DNA of 38,109 nt from Bacteroidota bacterium (GTDB taxonomy: Bacteria > Bacteroidota > Ignavibacteria > SZUA-365), in the NCBI GenBank assembly GCA_014860565.1, contig JACZJN010000184.1:1-38109 (forward strand), in the 5' to 3' direction. Made by a program: the position numbers and the translations under genes. The number at the start of each line of letters is the position of its first letter. Position 1 is the first letter of the stretch. Below are positions 21,281 through 30,436 of this stretch, one piece after another. The notes beneath the pieces are model-generated. The model did not search any database. It had not been told where the DNA came from and worked only from the letters and a program-made list of their open reading frames with translations.

Positions 21281-22714
21281 TTACAGTCCGAAGAGGTGCC
21301 ACAGCTGCGTGACGACAAACGTCGTGGCGACGCCCATAACCACAGGGAGAAGTGCGGATACGGTCGTCCATTTCAGGCTGCCGGTTTCACGGTATATCGT
21401 GTACAGTGTCGTGCTGCAGGGATTATGCAGCAGACTGAACAGCATCAGGTTGATGGCTGTCAGTAGCGTCCACCCCCCGGCATGCAGGAGGGTGAGAACG
21501 TCGGCGTTGGACTGCAGTTCGAACATCACGCCCGCGCCGTCTCCGACGCCTGTCACGCCTGCCACCAGTACCGTCAGCATGAGGATGGTGGGAATGACGA
21601 TCTCGTTCGCGGGGATTGCAAGAATGTACGCGACGAGGATCACGCCGTTGAGACCGATGAAAAGTCCGACGGGATCGAGCCAGTGAATCAGATATTCCGC
21701 GATGCTGACGCCCCCGAACTGGATGTTCGCGGAAAGCCAGATCGCCGCGCCGGCGGGAAGCGCGAACTTGATGGCACGCCAGAGCACGATGCCCGTCCGG
21801 TCGATGATGGAAGTGTAAATCGTGCGCCAGATGCGCGGGGGACGATAGGGAGGGAGTTCCAGGCTGTATGCGCTGGCCTCGCCGCGCAGGACGGTGCGGG
21901 AGAGAGACCAGGACGTGACAAACGTGAGCAGCACGCCGAGCAGGGCGATCCCGACCACGGCGAACGCGGAAATCAATCCGGCGAGCTCAGCCGGTGCGAG
22001 GGCACCGATGAATATCGTGGCAAGCAATATCTGCGTCGGCCAGCGGCCGTTGCACAGGGCGAAGTTGTTGGTGATGATCGCGATGAGTCTTTCACGCGGA
22101 CTGTCGATGATGCGTGTCGCGACGACACCGGCGGCGTTGCAGCCGAATCCCATCGTCATGGTCAGCGCCTGCTTGCCGTGCGCGCCGGCGCGATGGAAGA
22201 GTGCATCAAGGTTGAATGCCACGCGCGGGAGATAGCCGAAATCCTCGAGCAGCGTGAACAGCGGGAAGAAGATCGCCATCGGGGGGAGCATGACGCTCAC
22301 CACCCACGCGGTGGCGAGATACATGCCGTCGATCAGCAGACCGTCGAGCCACCACCAGAGTCCGATCGAAGCCGCCGCATGTTTGAGCATGGGCTGGATG
22401 GTGTCGATAAGCAATCCCGAAAGCAGGGCGGAGGGCACGTTCGCGCCGCTGATCGTTAGCCAGAACACCAGCGTCAGAAGCAGCAGCATGAGCGGGAAGC
22501 CCCAGATGCGACTGGTGATAATGCGGTCAAGCGTACGGTCGAATCCGCGTGCGGCAGCGTGATCGGGCCGCGAGACCACACGGTCGGAAATCCGCGCCGC
22601 CTCCGCATACAGCGATTCGGTCAACTGGTCGTGCAAATCGCCGCCCATGTCCCAGCGCAGTTTCTGTGCTTCGGCGACGATATCCGCTGCGGAGTTTCTG
22701 ACTTTCTGGGTCAT
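21281..22714 (-). CDS. feoB: FeoB permease half, encoded as a separate protein
   Basis: A 477-residue membrane protein equal to the C-terminal transport domain of FeoB, with two Gate-type halves. After about 60 soluble residues (TDR-like start, then [22 protein letters not shown]) come the pore motifs [21 protein letters not shown] and [11 protein letters not shown], and later PANEIVIPT and [17 protein letters not shown]. This GFGCNAAGV form is a FeoB subgroup distinct from the E. coli type. The start ATG at 22714 overlaps the GTPase stop as ATGA and has its own GGGGAG ribosome binding site 8 nt upstream, so the split looks genuine and not a frameshift. A longer open frame extends upstream but is the GTPase gene read out of frame. 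Confidence 0.93.
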
Positions 22715-23505
22715 GTGCGCATCTCCCCGAGTTCCCCGTTGAGCAACGCCTCGGTGATCGCGGCGTCTCCGTCGAGGAGACGAAGGGCGACCCATTCCGC
22801 GTTGGGCAGATCGGGCATGGACCGCTCGATCATTTCCGTCAGGCGGGAGAGGGAGGAACGCAGTTGCGGGGATTGGTAGCTGACACGGTATGGTTTGGAG
22901 CGGACGTTTGAGGCGGCGACTTCCCCGATCACTCCCAGCAGTTCGGGAATGCCCTCGTTCTGTCGTGCGCTCATCGGGACGACAGGCATACCGAGGTCGC
23001 GTGCCAGCCGTCTGTCGTCGATGTGCATTCCTTTCCTCTTTGCCTCGTCCATCAGATTCAGACACAGCACGGCGCGCTCGGTGATCTGGCTGACCTGCAG
23101 GGCGAGATTCAGATTCCGCTCGAGCCTGGTGGCGTCCACGACGACAAGCGTCACATCCGGCTGACCGAAGAGAATGAAATCCCGCGCGACGAGTTCGTCC
23201 TCGCTGGTGGCGAGCAGGGAATACGTCCCCGGAAGATCCACAAGCTTGTAGCGCAGTCCCGCGTATTCGAATCCGCCCTCCATTCGCGTCACGGTTTTTC
23301 CGGGCCAGTTCCCGGTGTGCTGCCGCAAACCCGTCAGCGAGTTGAACACGGTACTTTTGCCGGTGTTCGGATTGCCCGCGAGTGCGACGACGTAGTCGAA
23401 GTTTTTCATGTCCACTCCCAGCCGTTTCAACGCGCTGGCGTCGTGCATCGGACAGGTGGCGCAGGCATCGGAGGGAGGTTGTACGATCGGCTCTTGTTTT
23501 TTCAT
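22711..23505 (-). CDS. feoB: FeoB GTPase half, encoded as a separate protein
   Basis: A 264-residue protein holding only the FeoB G domain and the guanine-dissociation-inhibitor helical region. G motifs are complete: GNPNTGKST (G1), GNWPGKTVT (G2), DLPGTYSL (G3), NLMD (G4) and SARQNEG (G5). Before the G domain is a roughly 35-residue extension with ACATCPMHD, a possible metal-binding CxxC. In normal FeoB this domain is fused to the permease and controls ferrous iron transport. Here it ends at GELGEMRT and the permease begins in an overlapping ATGA. The pair should reassemble at the membrane. It lies 21 nt after the tethered DtxR-FeoA gene. Confidence 0.93.
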
Positions 23506-23526: not shown

Positions 23527-24597
23527 TCAGGATTCGTTGTTCGACTCGATGACGTTTGACGTTCCGGGTCCGTTGTCGTCGGCAGGCGGCTCGACGAGAA
23601 TGAGATCCGCCTGTTTGCGGCGCAGGGCGATGAGCGAACCGCGAATGTCATAGGCCACGGGATCTCCTCCGGGGCTGCGCAGTTCCGCGCTGATGTCCGT
23701 ACCGGGCAGCAGCCCGAGATCGAGCAGCCGACGGCGTTCGCTGCCGCGCAGACGCTGGGAGAGGCTGATGACGCGCGCATGCTGTCCCGGCTGCAATGAT
23801 GAGAGTGTGACGCCGTGTTCCGGCACGGCATGTTCGTCCTCACGCAGGTCGGCGACCACCGTGACGTTTTCTGCCGCACGGTAGGAGAGGCGTACTTCAC
23901 GTCCTTCGCAGCTGAGACGCACATGCTGATCGTCAGCGTGCAGAACGCGCACGTACTGACCGCTGGCGAGTCCGGCGGCCACCAGTTCCGCGTACAGCGC
24001 TTCCGGTTCGTCCTCCACGTGCACGATACGCACGAGTTGACCGGGTACCAGCCCCGCGAGCGCGTGGCTGTTTTCATGGTACGTGACAAAGCCATCCTGC
24101 GCGGGTATCGGATCGCCATGCGGGTCGTGCGTGGGATTCCCCAGTTTCCGCGCCAGTCCGGCGATATCCTGTTCGGTCAGGTCGTGCTCGCGTTCATCAG
24201 CGTATCGATGCCACTCCTGTTCTCCGTAGCCCGTTTCCTCGGCGAGATAGCGTTCGTACAGACGGTGCGCGCGCATGATGCGCAAGGCGTACGTTTGCCC
24301 CGCACTCGTAAGCTGAAGATCGGCCTCGAGCATGCCATGCGCTTCGAGGTCCTGCGTGACGTCCCGCAGTTCATGTTCATCGATGCGTAATGCGCGGAGA
24401 AGCTGCTCCTTCGGCAATGGTGAGGCACTGAGCCGGCTTTCGAGCAGATGTTTCAGGAGGTCCTCGCGCAGGACGCGCGCCTTGAATTCACGGTTGCGCC
24501 GCAGTACGCGCAGGAAGCCGCGGCCGTAGTGCCAGCCGGCGATGAGTGAGAGAGCAAGCAGGAAAAATACCAGGAGGTTAAGCAGCGGTGTGGACAT
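23527..24597 (-). CDS. Membrane-tethered DtxR-like protein fused to FeoA-type domains
   Basis: A 356-residue protein. Residues 5-25 are one hydrophobic helix (LLNLLVFFLLALSLIAGWHYG) followed by an arginine-rich cytoplasmic side. A winged-helix region (about 45-100) and DtxR dimerisation domain (100-165, ending GNPTHDPHGDPIP) follow. The metal ligands of DtxR/MntR are nearly all kept: His111, Glu115, His130, Glu137 and His138, with Asp134 where DtxR has Cys102. Two SH3-like FeoA domains come next (about 175-250 and 262-336, the second with LLDLGLLPGT). ATG 24597 follows a perfect AAGGAGG. It overlaps the dtxR gene by 20 nt and precedes feoB. It could be a metal sensor controlling FeoB at the membrane, or a tethered regulator; both are inference. 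Confidence 0.87.
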   Translation of the reverse strand: MSTPLLNLLVFFLLALSLIAGWHYGRGFLRVLRRNREFKARVLREDLLKHLLESRLSASPLPKEQLLRALRIDEHELRDVTQDLEAHGMLEADLQLTSAGQTYALRIMRAHRLYERYLAEETGYGEQEWHRYADEREHDLTEQDIAGLARKLGNPTHDPHGDPIPAQDGFVTYHENSHALAGLVPGQLVRIVHVEDEPEALYAELVAAGLASGQYVRVLHADDQHVRLSCEGREVRLSYRAAENVTVVADLREDEHAVPEHGVTLSSLQPGQHARVISLSQRLRGSERRRLLDLGLLPGTDISAELRSPGGDPVAYDIRGSLIALRRKQADLILVEPPADDNGPGTSNVIESNNES

Positions 24598-25264
24598 GCC
24601 GTACCTCCTTTTCCACGAAGACCTGTTGTGCGACGCTCGGTCCGAGCACCACTTTCCCACGCACTCCGTGAATACGCAGGGTCATGTTCTGGTCGAATGG
24701 GGAGCGCTCCTTCACCGTGAGGCGTTTCCCGGGTACCAGCCGGTTTTTTTCGAGATAGCGCAGTAGTGCCGCATCGCTGTCGCTGACGCGCTCGATCATC
24801 GCGACGTCGCCCGGCTGCAATTCCGCGAGGGAAAGCGCCTTTTCGTCCGGCATGTGCAGGTTGCGATCCGGGATGGGGTCGCCATGCGGATCATGCGTGG
24901 GATTGCCCAGCAGTTCCGCGATCCGTGCTTCGAACTCCTCGGAAATGACATGCTCCATACGGCAGGCCTCATCGTGCACGCGGTCCCACGAATACCCGAG
25001 CGTGCGATACAGGAACGTTTCTATCAGGCGGTGGTTTCGAATGACCTTCAGTGCCCAGCGGGTTCCCGCCTCCGTCAGAGATGCGCCATCGCGTTTCTTG
25101 TAAAGGATGAGCGGGGGATCGCTGCCCGCGAGCTTCTGCAGGTACCCCGTAACCGAGGCCTGGGAAATCCCCAGTCGGTCGGCGATATCCTTTGTCCCGG
25201 CGCGGTCCTGCTGCTGGGTCAGGTTGAAAATGGTTTTAAGATAGTCTTCTGTCGCCACATTCAT
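24578..25264 (-). CDS. DtxR/MntR-family metal-dependent transcriptional repressor
   Basis: A 228-residue regulator: winged helix (TKDIADRLGISQASVTGYLQKL), dimerisation and metal domain, then a C-terminal SH3/FeoA-like domain (LSLAELQPGDVAMIERV). Metal ligands are complete: Asp7 (as in MntR), His78, Glu82, His97, Cys101, Glu104 and His105. The mix of an MntR-like Asp7 and a DtxR-like Cys101 leaves the metal (iron or manganese) open. I start at ATG 25264, where family similarity starts (MNVATEDYLKTIF); an in-frame GTG at 25286-25288 would add eight residues and lies in the operator. First gene of the feo operon; a DtxR-type operator overlaps its promoter, so it probably represses itself and the uptake genes. 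Confidence 0.92.
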   Translation of the reverse strand: MNVATEDYLKTIFNLTQQQDRAGTKDIADRLGISQASVTGYLQKLAGSDPPLILYKKRDGASLTEAGTRWALKVIRNHRLIETFLYRTLGYSWDRVHDEACRMEHVISEEFEARIAELLGNPTHDPHGDPIPDRNLHMPDEKALSLAELQPGDVAMIERVSDSDAALLRYLEKNRLVPGKRLTVKERSPFDQNMTLRIHGVRGKVVLGPSVAQQVFVEKEVRHVHTAA

Positions 25265-25287: not shown

Positions 25288-25314
25288 CCTAAAAAGGAAA
25301 TTAGGCATCCCTAA
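25288..25314 (-). promoter_or_regulatory. DtxR-type operator of the feo operon
   Basis: Two nested inverted repeats of the half-site TTAGG/CCTAA: TTAGG (25301-25305), 4-nt gap, CCTAA (25310-25314); and CCTAA (25288-25292), 8-nt gap, the same TTAGG. These half-sites match those of DtxR/IdeR/MntR-family boxes. The first pair lies in the spacer between the -10 and -35 boxes, so binding should block transcription. Confidence 0.75.
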
Positions 25315-25326: not shown

Positions 25327-25531
25327 GCGAAAAATCCGGCCGGAATCCGTCGCGTCGAGATTGCCTCGGCGACAGCTGCGCAGCTGCCATGGAATGCTCC
25401 ACGGACGATGAGCGGAATCGACAATGGCTTCGTGGAGGGTTATTTTGGTGTCTGTAACAAAACTGAATGTGAGGTGTTGCTATGCTGAAACGTGCACGGA
25501 AGGTGTTACGATATTCGGGTTGGAGACAATA

Positions 25532-28500
25532 ATGTATCGTAGGCTGCTTCTTTCGATTCAGATGTGTGTTGTCTGCTGTTTTCTTATACACAGTTCATGG
25601 GCAACAGGAAACCCGAAAATTGAGGGGATACCGTCGCCGCGGCTGTTTGCAAGGAATATCGGGTCATGGGATAACAGGGTGCTCGCTGCCAGCATCGGCT
25701 TTGGGGGCACCATTTCTTTTGGAAAGAGCGGGTACCTTGTTGCAGCAGATGCGAATCATTCCCTCAAGGAGAGTGGATCGGCTCAACCTTGGCCGGGATT
25801 GCGCTTCATCGATGGTAATCAAGGGGCGCGTATCGTGCTGGTTGAGGATGCCAACGCGCCATTGAGATATTATAGTGGAGCGCACAATCCTTCGCAGGTG
25901 AAAGGTCAGAAGCAGTACAGAGTCCTGACATATCGCGATGCATGGGTCGGCGTGGATATCGAAATCAGAGGTACGACGTCCTCAATGCAGCATACCGTTA
26001 CAATCGATCCCACACGCGCCCCTGAGGCTGTCCGACTTCGTTTCGACAATGTTGCCGTCGAACAGTTGCAGCTACGGTGTACGGCGAAGGAGCAGGTATA
26101 CGCCGTGCAGGAATCGGGTGGTGGGGTGGAAGTCGTACTCTTTCCCGTTGCGGCGCCGACCGCGTTTACCGTCAGTATTGGATTTAATTTCTATTGGGGT
26201 GGTACTGGGGCTGAGAGTGAGATGGGGAATCAACTGCAGCTTGACCGACGTGGTGATCTTCACCTGACCGGTACGACGAGAGCCCCGGATTTCCCGTTCA
26301 GTCCTTCGTCACAGGCAGACTGTTTGCAGTATTTCCTTCGTTTCTCACCGGATGGGATACAACTTTACTACAGCAGTTTTTTTCATGGTTGCAGTTTTGA
26401 GAATGCCATCGGGTTGGGAGCGGATTCCGAGAACCGCATGTTCGCAGTACTGCGTGACGCAAACTATGCGGAGGTGCTCACTCCTGATGCACAGTATCGG
26501 AGTCGGATTGGACAAGCAACTGGAGCGGCGATGCTGCTGCTGGACACCACGGGGGCGCTCGTGTATGGTTCGGCCTTGCCCGAGGGATCCCGAGGCACTG
26601 ATTCTACGTTTTTTCCTCTTGATGCCAGATTGGACCGGGACGGGAACGCGTATATCATGGCGCTGATCAACTATAATCCGGCCTGTCTCACTCCGGATGC
26701 CATGTCCCCCGTAGGGATCGGAGGCTGGGACGGACTCCTGATGAAATTCGATGCGCATACGCATCGGCTGACATACGCCACCTGCCTCGGAACCGCGGCG
26801 GATGACCACTTCGAGTGCTTCGCCGTCGATGGCTGCGGTGGCGTTGCCTACCTGAGTTCCCGTTACGACAGCACGGTATTGCGTGAAGATTCCGTGACAA
26901 CCGGCTGTTACGTCTTCGATGTTGTCCGGCTCACCGCGGACTGCCGTCACTACCTGTTTCAACGCGAACTGATCGGCTGGGGAGACCATGATTTGAGACC
27001 CGGTTCTGGTTTGGAGCTCCGTTTCCATAGCAGGAGAATGGAATTCGATGCTGATGACAACCTGTATTTCGCAGCTACCACACGGGATAATCGCTTCCCG
27101 GTCGTCAGGGGGCTCCCTGTGTTCGCATCATCTCAAAACTCGAAAGTCGTCGCCGCGAAGCTCTCACGAAAAGGAGAGATTCTCTATTCAACGTATTATT
27201 CCGGCAATGATCAAATGTGGGTGTATGCTCTCACCGTTGACAATTGCGGTACCATGATGTTGAGCGGATGGGTCGGGTGGCTGGCTACACCCGCTCCGTA
27301 TGGACTCCCGATGGTCAATCCGGTTTCCGTCAGCGGGAACCGCTACCTCGCGGTGTTCGATACGCGTTCAGGAACGCTGGAATTCAGCACGCTGCTCGGA
27401 TTCATGGACTGGCACTGGGGCGGGGGCCTGGTGCTCAGCGATTCCGCGCTGTACACGGTGGCGCATTCCCATCCAACGCTCGCCGATATTCCCCTTACAG
27501 CCGGCATGCATCCACACTCGGGCGGAACCCATCAAATGGACCCCATGATCACGCGACTGGATATGCCGCAGCTATGTGGGAAGGAGCGCTACCCGCAGCC
27601 TCGGCCTGACATCGCGCAGCTTGTCACGACGCTGCATTGCACGGATACGATTCGCATCGACCTTCGGCGGAGGAAGATTTCCCCTCCCCTCATCCATGTC
27701 AGCGCCTCGATATCGAACACCAGCCTGCTCCATCTCGCGGACTCCTTCGACCTTCATCTCGGCCTGTCGCACCCGCTGCAGCGAGGGGCCGGATCCTCTC
27801 CGTTCAGCGCGCGTCTCGGGAGTCCGGCGCCGATGGACAGTGTACTGCTCGACTGGTATCTCGAAACGAGCCTTGACGCCATCGCGCCTGCCGGCACCGT
27901 GCGTGTCACCTTGACCGGGAACTCGGGCGGAAGCTGTCCTGTCCCTATCGATTACAGCGTCGACATTCCGGTGAAATACATCGACGATCCTGATGGCGAA
28001 ATCAGCTGCTCAATATTCGTCACTCCACAGCTTGCCGTGAAAACCGACAGAACGCGACTGCAGCATGACACTTTGCTTGTCTCCCTGCAAATCCGCAACC
28101 GGTTCCCTGCTCCGGCCCCGCTCGCCTCGGCTTCCCTGAACTGGCCGCGCGATGTGGGACTCACACTGATCGAGCCGCTGGATTCCGTGCAGGTCCCCCC
28201 TCTCGTCCCCGCATATGGCGAGGTGACGCTACGATGGAAATTCAGTGTCACTTCCTGGCCCTTCGGGAGGCCGCTGAAGTTTTCAGCGGTCATTGTCGAT
28301 ACGTTTGGAATAGAAATGTCCTCCTGTTCATGGGAGGGCGATATCCCCGGAACACCAGGCAGCATATGCATCCTCACGCTTCCGGATCGAGTGAGCTACC
28401 GGGCGGACGACAGCACATCACAGCCCTATCCCGTCATCGCGGAGCTCACAATTGAAAATCCCTGTGATTCAATCAGGCCATATACCGATATCCGGCTCGA

Positions 28501-30436
28501 TTTATCCCGTGCATTGCATCTCCGGCTGCTTCCTGGAGAATCACCGCGCAAGAGTGATACGACGATTGCGGAACGGACGTCGTGTAGCTTCACATGGAAT
28601 CTGCGTGTTTATCCTCCTCCTCGCGAGAGCGGTGTGGAGGAGGTCACGGTGCGATATCGCACAAACGCAGACACCGTGGGGCACGAATGTACTGCCATCC
28701 TGCGTCTCCAGCTTCTCTCCGCAGCGTTGAGCTGTGAACTGGACGGACCGGATTCGCTGCACATCGATGTGGGGCAGGGAACGTACGTGTCGGATACGGT
28801 GGTGGTTGTCAGCACCATACGCAATTCAGGTGTGCTCCCGCAGCCGATGGGAGCTGTCCGTTTGGAATGTGATCCACTCAATGGTGTCATTTTCCTTGAT
28901 TCCGCCGTGAAGTCCCTTCCGCGGATTGATCCCGGGAGGGAGGCCCAGGCGCAGTGGAGGTTGCAGTTCCCCCGCCTGCCATTCACGCAGATGTTCACCT
29001 TCACAGCGGTTGCAGAGGCTGCTGATGGAGGTTCTCTCACAACATGTCTGCATCGGATATACGCCCAGGCGTTCCCGCTGACGTGCCAGGTCTCGAGTGT
29101 GGATTCGGTGCACTACAACGCAGTGACAGGGAGCTTCGACCCTGTATCGTTGGTGGTGACCGCGCGTTTCGAGAACCGGAGCGACACCGCGCTGACGAAC
29201 CTCGGTGCAGTCCTGGATACCTCTCTGCTTCAGCGAGTTCATCTTCTGGATCCTTCCCGGACCGAACAGATCCTGGCGAACCTACCGGGCGGACAGATAT
29301 GGGAGGTTTCATGGCTACTGGAACCAACCTTGGGAGAACAGGCGATTGAGGAACGCGTACGGGTGCGATTCCATGCAGCGGAGATTGCATCCACGACGCT
29401 TTGTGAAGCAGTGGTCTGGATCGATGGTGAAGAGCGTCTGGTAGGTCTGCATTGTGCAACCGACGGACACGACACGCTGTACGCGGATGGATACTACGAG
29501 CGGTTTATCCCGGATCCGCTGCATGTGTCCTACACCGTGACCAATACCGGGACCGTGCCACTCACTGGCTGCGAGGCAGCGATTATACTTCCCGCTGAGC
29601 TCGTTCTTGCCACTGCGGACAGCATACAAAGCTTCACCGCACCGGAGTATGGCAACCAAACAGGCGGTCCGGTAACGGAAGGGACACTGCTCCCGGGCGC
29701 CTCTTGCACACGTTGGTGGCTTATCTCACCGACGAAAGCCCTCACGCGTCAGGATCCCCTGGAACTCCGCTGGAGCTGGGTGAGCGATGAGCAGGGAAGC
29801 GGTCCAGGCTGCAGCCGTACACTGTGGATCAATCCGGATGTGCCACCGAGCATCGTGCTCACGCCATTGCATCTGCATTTTGAAGCGGAGAAGGGCGGAC
29901 CGCTCCCGACCGAACAGAATGTCCAACTCTGGACAGGTGGCGGAGTCTCGATGCCCTGGACTGCCCAGCCATCCGAGTGGTGGCTCGACGCGCGACCGGC
30001 GGGTGGTAGTCAGTCCACACAGATCGCGATGCAGCCGAACAGCACGATGCTCGATGTCGGTGCGCATGGCGCGAATCTACAGTTCACCACAACGCCGACG
30101 GACCGCCTTGTGGAAGTGACGTATGTCATCCGCAAGAGCACAGGCATCAGCGAGCCACAGGCGCCGGGAACGTTTACCCTCGACGCTTGGCCGCAGCCGG
30201 TGTCGGCGGGAGGGCGGCTGAGCATTCGCATTGATGGATCAGCAGGGGAGGACTACTGCATGACATTGTACGACCTGCTAGGACGTAAGCATGCGGAACT
30301 GCTGACGAATGCAGGAAAGAATGTGACTATCGATGCAGATGCATCGCAGTTGACACCCGGCGTGTATCTCCTCCGCGCCGTCTCTGCGAACGGCGCACAG
30401 GCGACACGGATGATCTCGGTGACGGGAGGACGCTGA
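25532..30436 (+). CDS. Very large T9SS-secreted protein with beta-propeller and tandem Ig-like repeats
   Basis: A 1634-residue protein. ATG 25532 follows GGAG and starts a signal peptide (YRRLLLSIQMCVVCCFLIHSSWA). Residues to about 690 resemble SBBP-type beta-propeller proteins (repeats such as LTGTTRAPDFPF, LDRDGNAYIMALINYNP and LTVDNCGTMMLSGWV). Then come about six repeats of roughly 115-128 residues, each opening with a Cys and an acidic beta strand (near residues 698, 826, 943, 1066, 1183 and 1305), Ig or CARDB-like. Next is a BACON-like domain (SIVLTPLHLHFEAEKGGPLP) and a T9SS type A sorting domain in the last 85 residues (LDAWPQPVSAGG, LYDLLGRKH, LTPGVYLLRA). Likely a cell-surface or released adhesin-like protein. 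It is monocistronic and divergent from the feo operon. Confidence 0.85.
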   Translation: MYRRLLLSIQMCVVCCFLIHSSWATGNPKIEGIPSPRLFARNIGSWDNRVLAASIGFGGTISFGKSGYLVAADANHSLKESGSAQPWPGLRFIDGNQGARIVLVEDANAPLRYYSGAHNPSQVKGQKQYRVLTYRDAWVGVDIEIRGTTSSMQHTVTIDPTRAPEAVRLRFDNVAVEQLQLRCTAKEQVYAVQESGGGVEVVLFPVAAPTAFTVSIGFNFYWGGTGAESEMGNQLQLDRRGDLHLTGTTRAPDFPFSPSSQADCLQYFLRFSPDGIQLYYSSFFHGCSFENAIGLGADSENRMFAVLRDANYAEVLTPDAQYRSRIGQATGAAMLLLDTTGALVYGSALPEGSRGTDSTFFPLDARLDRDGNAYIMALINYNPACLTPDAMSPVGIGGWDGLLMKFDAHTHRLTYATCLGTAADDHFECFAVDGCGGVAYLSSRYDSTVLREDSVTTGCYVFDVVRLTADCRHYLFQRELIGWGDHDLRPGSGLELRFHSRRMEFDADDNLYFAATTRDNRFPVVRGLPVFASSQNSKVVAAKLSRKGEILYSTYYSGNDQMWVYALTVDNCGTMMLSGWVGWLATPAPYGLPMVNPVSVSGNRYLAVFDTRSGTLEFSTLLGFMDWHWGGGLVLSDSALYTVAHSHPTLADIPLTAGMHPHSGGTHQMDPMITRLDMPQLCGKERYPQPRPDIAQLVTTLHCTDTIRIDLRRRKISPPLIHVSASISNTSLLHLADSFDLHLGLSHPLQRGAGSSPFSARLGSPAPMDSVLLDWYLETSLDAIAPAGTVRVTLTGNSGGSCPVPIDYSVDIPVKYIDDPDGEISCSIFVTPQLAVKTDRTRLQHDTLLVSLQIRNRFPAPAPLASASLNWPRDVGLTLIEPLDSVQVPPLVPAYGEVTLRWKFSVTSWPFGRPLKFSAVIVDTFGIEMSSCSWEGDIPGTPGSICILTLPDRVSYRADDSTSQPYPVIAELTIENPCDSIRPYTDIRLDLSRALHLRLLPGESPRKSDTTIAERTSCSFTWNLRVYPPPRESGVEEVTVRYRTNADTVGHECTAILRLQLLSAALSCELDGPDSLHIDVGQGTYVSDTVVVVSTIRNSGVLPQPMGAVRLECDPLNGVIFLDSAVKSLPRIDPGREAQAQWRLQFPRLPFTQMFTFTAVAEAADGGSLTTCLHRIYAQAFPLTCQVSSVDSVHYNAVTGSFDPVSLVVTARFENRSDTALTNLGAVLDTSLLQRVHLLDPSRTEQILANLPGGQIWEVSWLLEPTLGEQAIEERVRVRFHAAEIASTTLCEAVVWIDGEERLVGLHCATDGHDTLYADGYYERFIPDPLHVSYTVTNTGTVPLTGCEAAIILPAELVLATADSIQSFTAPEYGNQTGGPVTEGTLLPGASCTRWWLISPTKALTRQDPLELRWSWVSDEQGSGPGCSRTLWINPDVPPSIVLTPLHLHFEAEKGGPLPTEQNVQLWTGGGVSMPWTAQPSEWWLDARPAGGSQSTQIAMQPNSTMLDVGAHGANLQFTTTPTDRLVEVTYVIRKSTGISEPQAPGTFTLDAWPQPVSAGGRLSIRIDGSAGEDYCMTLYDLLGRKHAELLTNAGKNVTIDADASQLTPGVYLLRAVSANGAQATRMISVTGGR

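What the first reader, a model, noticed from the sequence alone, without database searches (positions are those of the whole stretch)
23527..24597. Membrane-tethered DtxR-like protein fused to two FeoA domains, with an MntR-like metal site
One protein joins a single N-terminal membrane helix, a winged helix, a DtxR dimerisation domain that keeps five of six metal ligands (Cys102 position is Asp134) and two SH3/FeoA modules. It lies between a normal DtxR repressor gene and feoB. FeoA normally contacts FeoB, so this looks like a metal sensor placed at the membrane that could gate FeoB according to cytosolic metal, in place of or in addition to DNA control. Domain content is read from the sequence; the regulatory role is inference.
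Basis: partly seen in the sequence, partly recalled or inferred. Interest (0 to 1): 0.78.

Follow-up and report, generated by a model that had tools for sequence, protein, structure and literature searches.

The report
Membrane-anchored metal sensor carrying FeoA
Many bacteria from at least ten phyla fuse a metal sensor, usually a DNA-binding repressor, to a membrane anchor and to FeoA, the small partner of a metal importer of the FeoB family, which suggests (untested) that these cells let the sensor act on the importer itself as well as on its gene.

Summary
Window 24597→23527 (minus strand) encodes a 356-aa protein: N-terminal TM helix, winged helix, DtxR metal/dimerisation domain, DtxR-type SH3 and a true FeoA domain. 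It lies between a soluble dtxR and a FeoB split into two genes. It is a conserved, apparently undescribed family: 69 members gathered, at least 10 phyla, TM segment in all, near-invariant metal ligands, and a FeoB gene directly downstream wherever the contig continues. Across 345 genomes it occurs only with one FeoB clade (37/42 against 0/303). Four genomes of that clade have a plain FeoA in exactly its slot, so it is that FeoB's FeoA with a tethered sensor attached. Its soluble paralogue keeps the DNA-binding signature (42/42) and a unique operator before the operon; the tethered protein lost it (3/65) and has an acidic winged helix. Best explanation: a membrane-anchored Mn(II)/Fe(II) sensor that regulates FeoB post-translationally through FeoA, a second feedback layer beside the repressor. 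Gating and metal identity are inferred; Mn is favoured. Closest known: soluble PgMntR (twin FeoA, beside Mn transporter FeoB2) and Chlamydia YtgC–YtgR. A deep Chloroflexota/Bryobacteraceae subclade keeps a less degenerate winged helix, so DNA binding may survive there.

The parts
23527..24597 (-). TM-DtxR-FeoA gene (356 aa), membrane-anchored metal sensor fused to FeoA
   Evidence: ORF and ribosome site; Pfam; AF2 pLDDT 93; 69 homologues
24532..24588 (-). Transmembrane helix (about residues 4-22), N-out/C-in by the positive-inside rule; one continuous helix 4-56 with alpha1 of the winged helix
24301..24468 (-). Winged helix (residues 44-99): alpha1 carries conserved E45/D46/K49; recognition helix and wing divergent and acidic
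24103..24300 (-). Metal-binding and dimerisation domain (residues 100-165) with H111, E115, H130, D134, E137, H138 and DPHGDPIP
23854..24060 (-). DtxR-type SH3 domain (FeoA-like 1, residues 180-248) with invariant H193-V-E195-D196-E197-P198
23584..23811 (-). C-terminal true FeoA domain (residues 263-338), replaced by a stand-alone FeoA in four sister loci
24578..25264 (-). Soluble DtxR/MntR-type repressor gene (ATG 25264, or GTG 25288), overlapping the TM-DtxR-FeoA gene by 20 bp; the only PF01325 match in the genome
25301..25314 (-). Operator-like palindrome TTAGGGATGCCTAA; the only exact TTAGGN4CCTAA in the 4.75 Mb genome
22711..23505 (-). feoB part 1: GTPase domain as a separate 264-aa protein
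21281..22714 (-). feoB part 2: transporter domain (477 aa; ATGA overlap with part 1), CNGRWPT motif

Best explanation
The protein is the FeoA subunit of a distinct FeoB-family importer to which a membrane-anchored, DtxR-derived metal sensor has been fused. SHOWN: the architecture, its conservation, co-occurrence with one FeoB clade, replacement by a plain FeoA at the same position, near-invariance of the ligands, loss of the DtxR DNA-binding signature in the window's lineage, and an operator before the adjacent soluble repressor. INFERRED: (1) cytosolic metal, probably Mn(II) and possibly Fe(II), binds the DtxR-type site made by alpha1 (D46), the dimerisation domain and the SH3 domain; (2) because alpha1 runs straight into the TM helix and the SH3 domain leads into FeoA, metal binding moves the anchor and the SH3/FeoA arm together; (3) this changes how FeoA holds the FeoB GTPase, most simply shutting import when cytosolic metal is sufficient (feedback inhibition). 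The soluble DtxR represses the whole operon through the TTAGGN4CCTAA box, so one metal signal acts at two levels: slow on transcription, fast on the transporter.
For: Every homologue found by the sensor alone has FeoB directly downstream unless the contig ends. In 345 genomes the FeoB clade is in 42 and the sensor in 37 of those and in none of 303 others. Four exceptions have a small FeoA frame (85-125 aa) matching only the sensor's C-terminal domain, in its exact slot, with a soluble DtxR next door. TM helix with positive-inside flank 65/65; ligands 62-65 of 65. Paired with the soluble DtxR of the same loci, the metal domain is slightly more conserved (63 vs 59% identity), while the recognition helix (31 vs 48%) and wing (29 vs 47%) are less so and the winged helix is acidic (-4.1 vs +1.1; Wilcoxon p=2e-7); PF01325 in 3/65 against 42/42. 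Operator in 28/42 loci within 100 bp of dtxR, shuffled mean 0.04. AF2: helix 4-56 unbroken. FeoA stabilises GTP-bound FeoB in B. fragilis (PMC8980893). Mn bias: best structural and NCBIfam matches are Mn regulators, E/D at the Cys102 position, Nramp in 11/42 genomes with the clade against 208/303 without (not corrected for phylogeny); the twin-FeoA relative PgMntR sits beside a Mn-transporting FeoB (PMC4805248).
Against: No direct evidence of metal binding, of contact with FeoB or of gating; no complex could be modelled. In Chloroflexota/Bryobacteraceae members without a neighbouring dtxR the winged helix is neutral or positive, and one of 24 such loci (L050) has the operator before the sensor gene, so DNA binding may persist there. 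At least four genomes do without the fusion. The sign of regulation is a guess.
Confidence: 0.62

Rival explanations
1. Membrane-tethered transcriptional repressor: the protein binds DNA while anchored, or is cleaved to free a soluble DtxR-FeoA repressor, like Chlamydia YtgC-YtgR.
For: YtgR is released from an ABC permease and represses DNA (PMC5599777); similar permease-DtxR fusions occur in genomes of the same class. PgMntR with twin FeoA binds DNA (PMC4805248). Some deep members keep a neutral or positive winged helix and one has an operator before the sensor gene.
Against: In the window's lineage the recognition helix and wing are unconserved and acidic and PF01325 is lost (3/65 vs 42/42) while the soluble paralogue keeps both and owns the operator. 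The linker is predicted as part of an unbroken helix with no conserved motif seen. The C-terminal FeoA swaps with a plain FeoA.
Confidence: 0.16
2. Anchored FeoA only: the DtxR part is a metal-stabilised dimerisation scaffold that brings FeoA to the split FeoB; no signal is sensed.
For: FeoB is split in 54 of 70 loci, so an anchor could help hold GTPase and transporter together; dimerisation domain and FeoA are among the best-conserved domains.
Against: A mere scaffold need not keep a complete set of metal ligands including the SH3 ones; 16 fused-FeoB loci have the same protein and four split loci do without it.
Confidence: 0.15
3. Metal acceptor or buffer: the sensor takes the ion leaving FeoB and hands it on, rather than regulating.
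For: Position beside the importer and a possibly multi-ion site (the relative PgMntR binds three Mn per monomer, PMC4805248).
Against: DtxR/MntR-type sites are sensor sites in the known members (general knowledge); the FeoA fusion points to the GTPase.
Confidence: 0.07

Closest known systems
PgMntR (PG1044) of Porphyromonas gingivalis, operon with Mn transporter FeoB2
   Same: Winged helix + DtxR metal domain + two FeoA-like domains beside a FeoB; the published predicted ligands D19, H85, E89, H104, E111, H112, D132, H134, H166, D169, E170 correspond to D46, H111, E115, H130, E137, H138, D158, H160, H193, D196, E197 here (numbers from PMC4805248; register by near-constant offset, no alignment run).
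   Different: PgMntR is soluble, starts about 27 residues later without room for the TM helix, has Cys108 where this family has Glu/Asp, and binds its promoter DNA.
YtgC-YtgR permease-repressor fusion of Chlamydia trachomatis
   Same: DtxR-type sensor joined to the membrane part of a metal-uptake system (PMC5599777).
   Different: Fused to an ABC permease, no FeoA, cleaved to a DNA-binding repressor.
FeoA-FeoB fusion of Bacteroides fragilis
   Same: FeoA held covalently in the FeoB system; FeoA stabilises GTP-bound FeoB (PMC8980893).
   Different: FeoA is fused to FeoB itself and there is no metal sensor.
FeoC
   Same: Accessory of FeoB that acts post-translationally (PMC10710835) and is a winged-helix protein (general knowledge); one of 65 winged helices here gives a weak FeoC match.
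   Different: FeoC is small, soluble and controls FeoB stability; no DtxR metal site.
ModC regulatory domain (transinhibition by molybdate) in Methanosarcina acetivorans
   Same: Substrate-sensing domain coupled to the importer to stop transport (PMC10710835).
   Different: Different transporter, fold and metal.

Membership tests
DtxR/MntR metalloregulators | PF02742 metal-binding/dimerisation domain with the DtxR ligand set | tested here: met
   PF02742 in 65/65; H79/E83/H98/E105/H106 equivalents 65/65, D at MntR Asp8 62/65, E/D at Cys102 64/65
DtxR/MntR metalloregulators | N-terminal DNA-binding domain PF01325 with conserved recognition helix | tested here: not met
   PF01325 in 3/65 and not in the window protein against 42/42 soluble paralogues; recognition helix and wing divergent and acidic
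DtxR/MntR metalloregulators | Soluble repressor binding an operator | not testable with these tools
   A TM helix is present in all members, which argues against solubility; DNA binding needs EMSA/ChIP
FeoA | FeoA fold and Pfam match | tested here: met
   PF04023 at 263-337; 7r7b Z 14.3, rmsd 1.5
FeoA | Encoded next to its FeoB | tested here: met
   FeoB directly downstream in all loci where the contig continues; plain FeoA in the same slot in four loci
FeoA | Small stand-alone cytosolic protein | tested here: not met
   Fused behind TM-DtxR in 69 loci
FeoA | Binds FeoB GTPase | not testable with these tools
   No complex modelling or assay available
PgMntR-type twin-FeoA regulators | Two C-terminal FeoA-like domains after a DtxR core | tested here: met
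PgMntR-type twin-FeoA regulators | Soluble, no TM helix | tested here: not met
   TM helix 65/65
Meo (Mn-transporting FeoB) | FeoB falls in the clade of P. gingivalis FeoB2 | not tested
Meo (Mn-transporting FeoB) | Transports Mn(II) | not testable with these tools
   Only indirect: Mn-type regulators, fewer Nramp genes
YtgC-YtgR fusions | DtxR domain fused to an ABC permease | tested here: not met
   Single TM helix only; permease fusions found separately in L011, L013, L015, L027

The most novel reading that the evidence does not exclude
A widespread, undescribed class of FeoB importers (Mn or Fe) is switched off directly by a membrane-anchored DtxR-derived sensor fused to FeoA, so that a repressor fold has moved from DNA to the transporter, and a soluble repressor and a tethered sensor read the same metal at two levels.
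Probability: 0.5. Interest if true: 0.86.

Novelty: new variant of a known kind. Interest (0 to 1): 0.72.

Why it matters
What FeoA does and how FeoB is regulated are open questions in bacterial metal uptake. Here nature has attached a metal sensor to FeoA, in at least ten phyla, which gives a clean handle: mutate the metal site or swap the fusion for a plain FeoA, as some relatives do naturally, and measure uptake. If right, it is a transport counterpart of a classic gene repressor, and it marks a FeoB clade that is probably not the ordinary iron importer but falls under ferrous-iron family models.

Tried and rejected
Annotation or start-codon artefact: rejected, the TM segment is in all homologues and the ribosome site fits. 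Signal peptide: unlikely, no positive n-region and K/R follow the helix. Split FeoB as a frameshift: rejected, 54 of 70 loci are split. FeoA-only loci as one ancestral lineage: the FeoB tree needs two changes, but the backbone is poorly resolved and the root is unsure, so direction is not settled. The canonical feoA region of the same genome has no TTAGGN4CCTAA box (best 4 mismatches). Full-text searches found no paper describing a TM-DtxR-FeoA protein, but the library lacks most subscription journals. Searches for permease-DtxR fusion papers by those words found nothing; the Chlamydia review turned up in another search. NCBIfam has no model for the family: matches lie far below the curated cut-offs. 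A PgMntR sequence was not retrieved, so its relation rests on published residue numbers.

Full report
WHAT IS THERE. The finding lies on the minus strand. ORF 24597→23527 encodes 356 aa with a good ribosome site (AAGGAGGT) before the ATG. The operon reads: soluble dtxR (25264 or 25288→24578), the finding's gene (overlapping it by 20 bp), feoB GTPase part (23505→22711) and feoB transporter part (22714→21281, ATGA overlap). So FeoB is split. The genome also has a conventional feoA-feoB pair on another contig.

DOMAINS. Pfam gives PF02742 (97-165) and PF04023 (263-337), with a weaker PF04023 stretch over the first SH3 module. The AF2 model built with 65 family members has mean pLDDT 93. Residues 38-250 match Mn-dependent DtxR-family repressors (5zr6, Z 20.6; DR2539, Z 19.6) and 263-338 match B. 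fragilis FeoA (7r7b, Z 14.3, rmsd 1.5). Helix 4-56 is unbroken: the TM helix runs directly into alpha1 of the winged helix, which carries Asp46, the equivalent of MntR Asp8.

A FAMILY. A protein search of GTDB genomes found 29 loci in Calditrichota, Latescibacterota, Planctomycetota, Acidobacteriota, Chloroflexota, Bacteroidota, Ignavibacteria, Verrucomicrobiota, Gemmatimonadota, Nitrospinota and one Bacillota bin; whole-genome searches added close relatives and class/phylum members. The 69 open frames gathered all have a hydrophobic N-terminal segment. In the 65 aligned, K/R counts average 0.08 before and 5.9 after the helix, in the same sense in 65/65, so N-out with the sensor in the cytosol. 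The TM sequence itself is poorly conserved (about 25% identity), so the hydrophobic anchor, not a sequence, is selected.

METAL SITE. In 65 sequences H111, E115, H130, E137, H138, H193, E195, D196 and E197 are invariant, D46 is 62/65 and position 134 is E (53), D (11) or H (1). These are the DtxR/MntR ligand positions plus an SH3-domain cluster. The predicted ligands of P. gingivalis PgMntR (PMC4805248) fall on the same residues with a near-constant offset, except Cys108, which is Glu/Asp here. PgMntR binds Mn tightly, has twin FeoA domains and sits beside the Mn transporter FeoB2, but it is soluble and binds DNA.

THE PARTNER. Wherever the contig continues, FeoB follows directly. A survey of 345 genomes of the phylum with the FeoB transporter half gave a sharply separated clade in 42 genomes; the sensor is in 37 of these and in none of the other 303. 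Of the five without it, one contig ends too early; the other four (L125, L127, L128, L130) have a small FeoA frame (85-125 aa) that matches only the sensor's C-terminal FeoA domain, in exactly its place, and a soluble DtxR next door. On the FeoB tree these four fall in two places, though its backbone is weak. The simplest reading is that the sensor is this FeoB's FeoA with a TM-DtxR module added (or lost in these four).

DNA BINDING APPEARS LOST IN THIS LINEAGE. In 42 loci that have both proteins, the metal domain is slightly more conserved in the tethered one (63 vs 59% identity) but the recognition helix (31 vs 48%) and wing (29 vs 47%) are much less so; bootstrap intervals exclude zero. Net charge of the winged helix is -4.1 against +1.1 (36 of 42 pairs lower, 4 equal; p=2e-7). 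PF01325 is found in 3/65 tethered proteins and 42/42 soluble ones. Caveat: members without a neighbouring dtxR average -1.6, and a deep Chloroflexota/Bryobacteraceae subclade is neutral or positive, with an operator before the sensor gene in L050.

TRANSCRIPTION HAS ITS OWN REGULATOR. TTAGGGATGCCTAA lies 50 bp before the soluble dtxR ATG and is the only exact TTAGGN4CCTAA in the 4.75 Mb genome. TTA[AG]GN4C[CT]TAA occurs within 100 bp upstream of dtxR in 28 of 42 loci; shuffles average 0.04. The soluble DtxR is the only PF01325 match in this genome. So the tethered protein is not needed as the operon's repressor. That the soluble DtxR binds this box is inferred from family knowledge, not shown.

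HOW IT MOST LIKELY WORKS. Shown: architecture, conservation, co-occurrence, FeoA replacement, ligand conservation, divergence of the DNA-binding domain, operator-like box. Inferred: metal bound between alpha1, the dimerisation domain and the SH3 domain moves the anchor and the FeoA arm, changing FeoA's hold on the FeoB GTPase; feedback inhibition is the most economical sign. FeoA is reported to stabilise GTP-bound FeoB (PMC8980893), and coupling a substrate-sensing domain to an importer has precedent in ModC (PMC10710835).

WHICH METAL. Mn is favoured: best structural and NCBIfam matches are Mn regulators; Glu/Asp at the Cys102 position, and Glu in 36/42 soluble partners (Cys in the window's); the FeoB clade carries CNGRWPT rather than the CSARLP or CSAQ motifs of other FeoB proteins in these genomes; many of its genomes also have a conventional FeoB; Nramp is present in 11/42 genomes with the clade and 208/303 without (uncorrected for phylogeny). 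A 'Meo' family of Mn-transporting FeoB proteins has been proposed (PMC8749426). Whether this clade belongs to it was not tested. Fe is not excluded.

NOVELTY. Each part is known; the combination of membrane anchor, DtxR sensor and FeoA, tied to one FeoB clade, was not found in the literature searched and has no family model. PgMntR and YtgC-YtgR are the nearest precedents. I rate it a new variant of a known kind.

Noticed in passing
window 25301-25314: Perfect DtxR-type palindrome before dtxR, unique in the whole genome: the soluble repressor seems to have essentially one exact target, its own operon.
   Followed up: yes
window 21281-23505: FeoB split into a separate GTPase and transporter with an ATGA overlap; split in 54 of 70 loci of this clade and fused in 16, scattered on the tree.
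   Followed up: partly
L011, L013, L015, L027: Metal ABC permease fused to a DtxR-type sensor with the same ligand motifs (YtgC-YtgR-like) in genomes of the same class; could be tested for the same loss of DNA binding.
   Followed up: partly
G020:C61, G030:C4 and others: Nramp open frames of about 620-690 aa, far longer than the usual 420-460, some next to a DtxR gene; the extension was not examined.
   Followed up: no
L048-L058 (Bryobacteraceae, Chloroflexota): Deep subclade of the family with a neutral or basic winged helix and no neighbouring dtxR; possibly still DNA-binding.
   Followed up: partly
window 25424-30436 (+): 1670-aa repeat protein divergent from dtxR, with a C-terminal segment that looks like a secretion sorting domain.
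   Followed up: no
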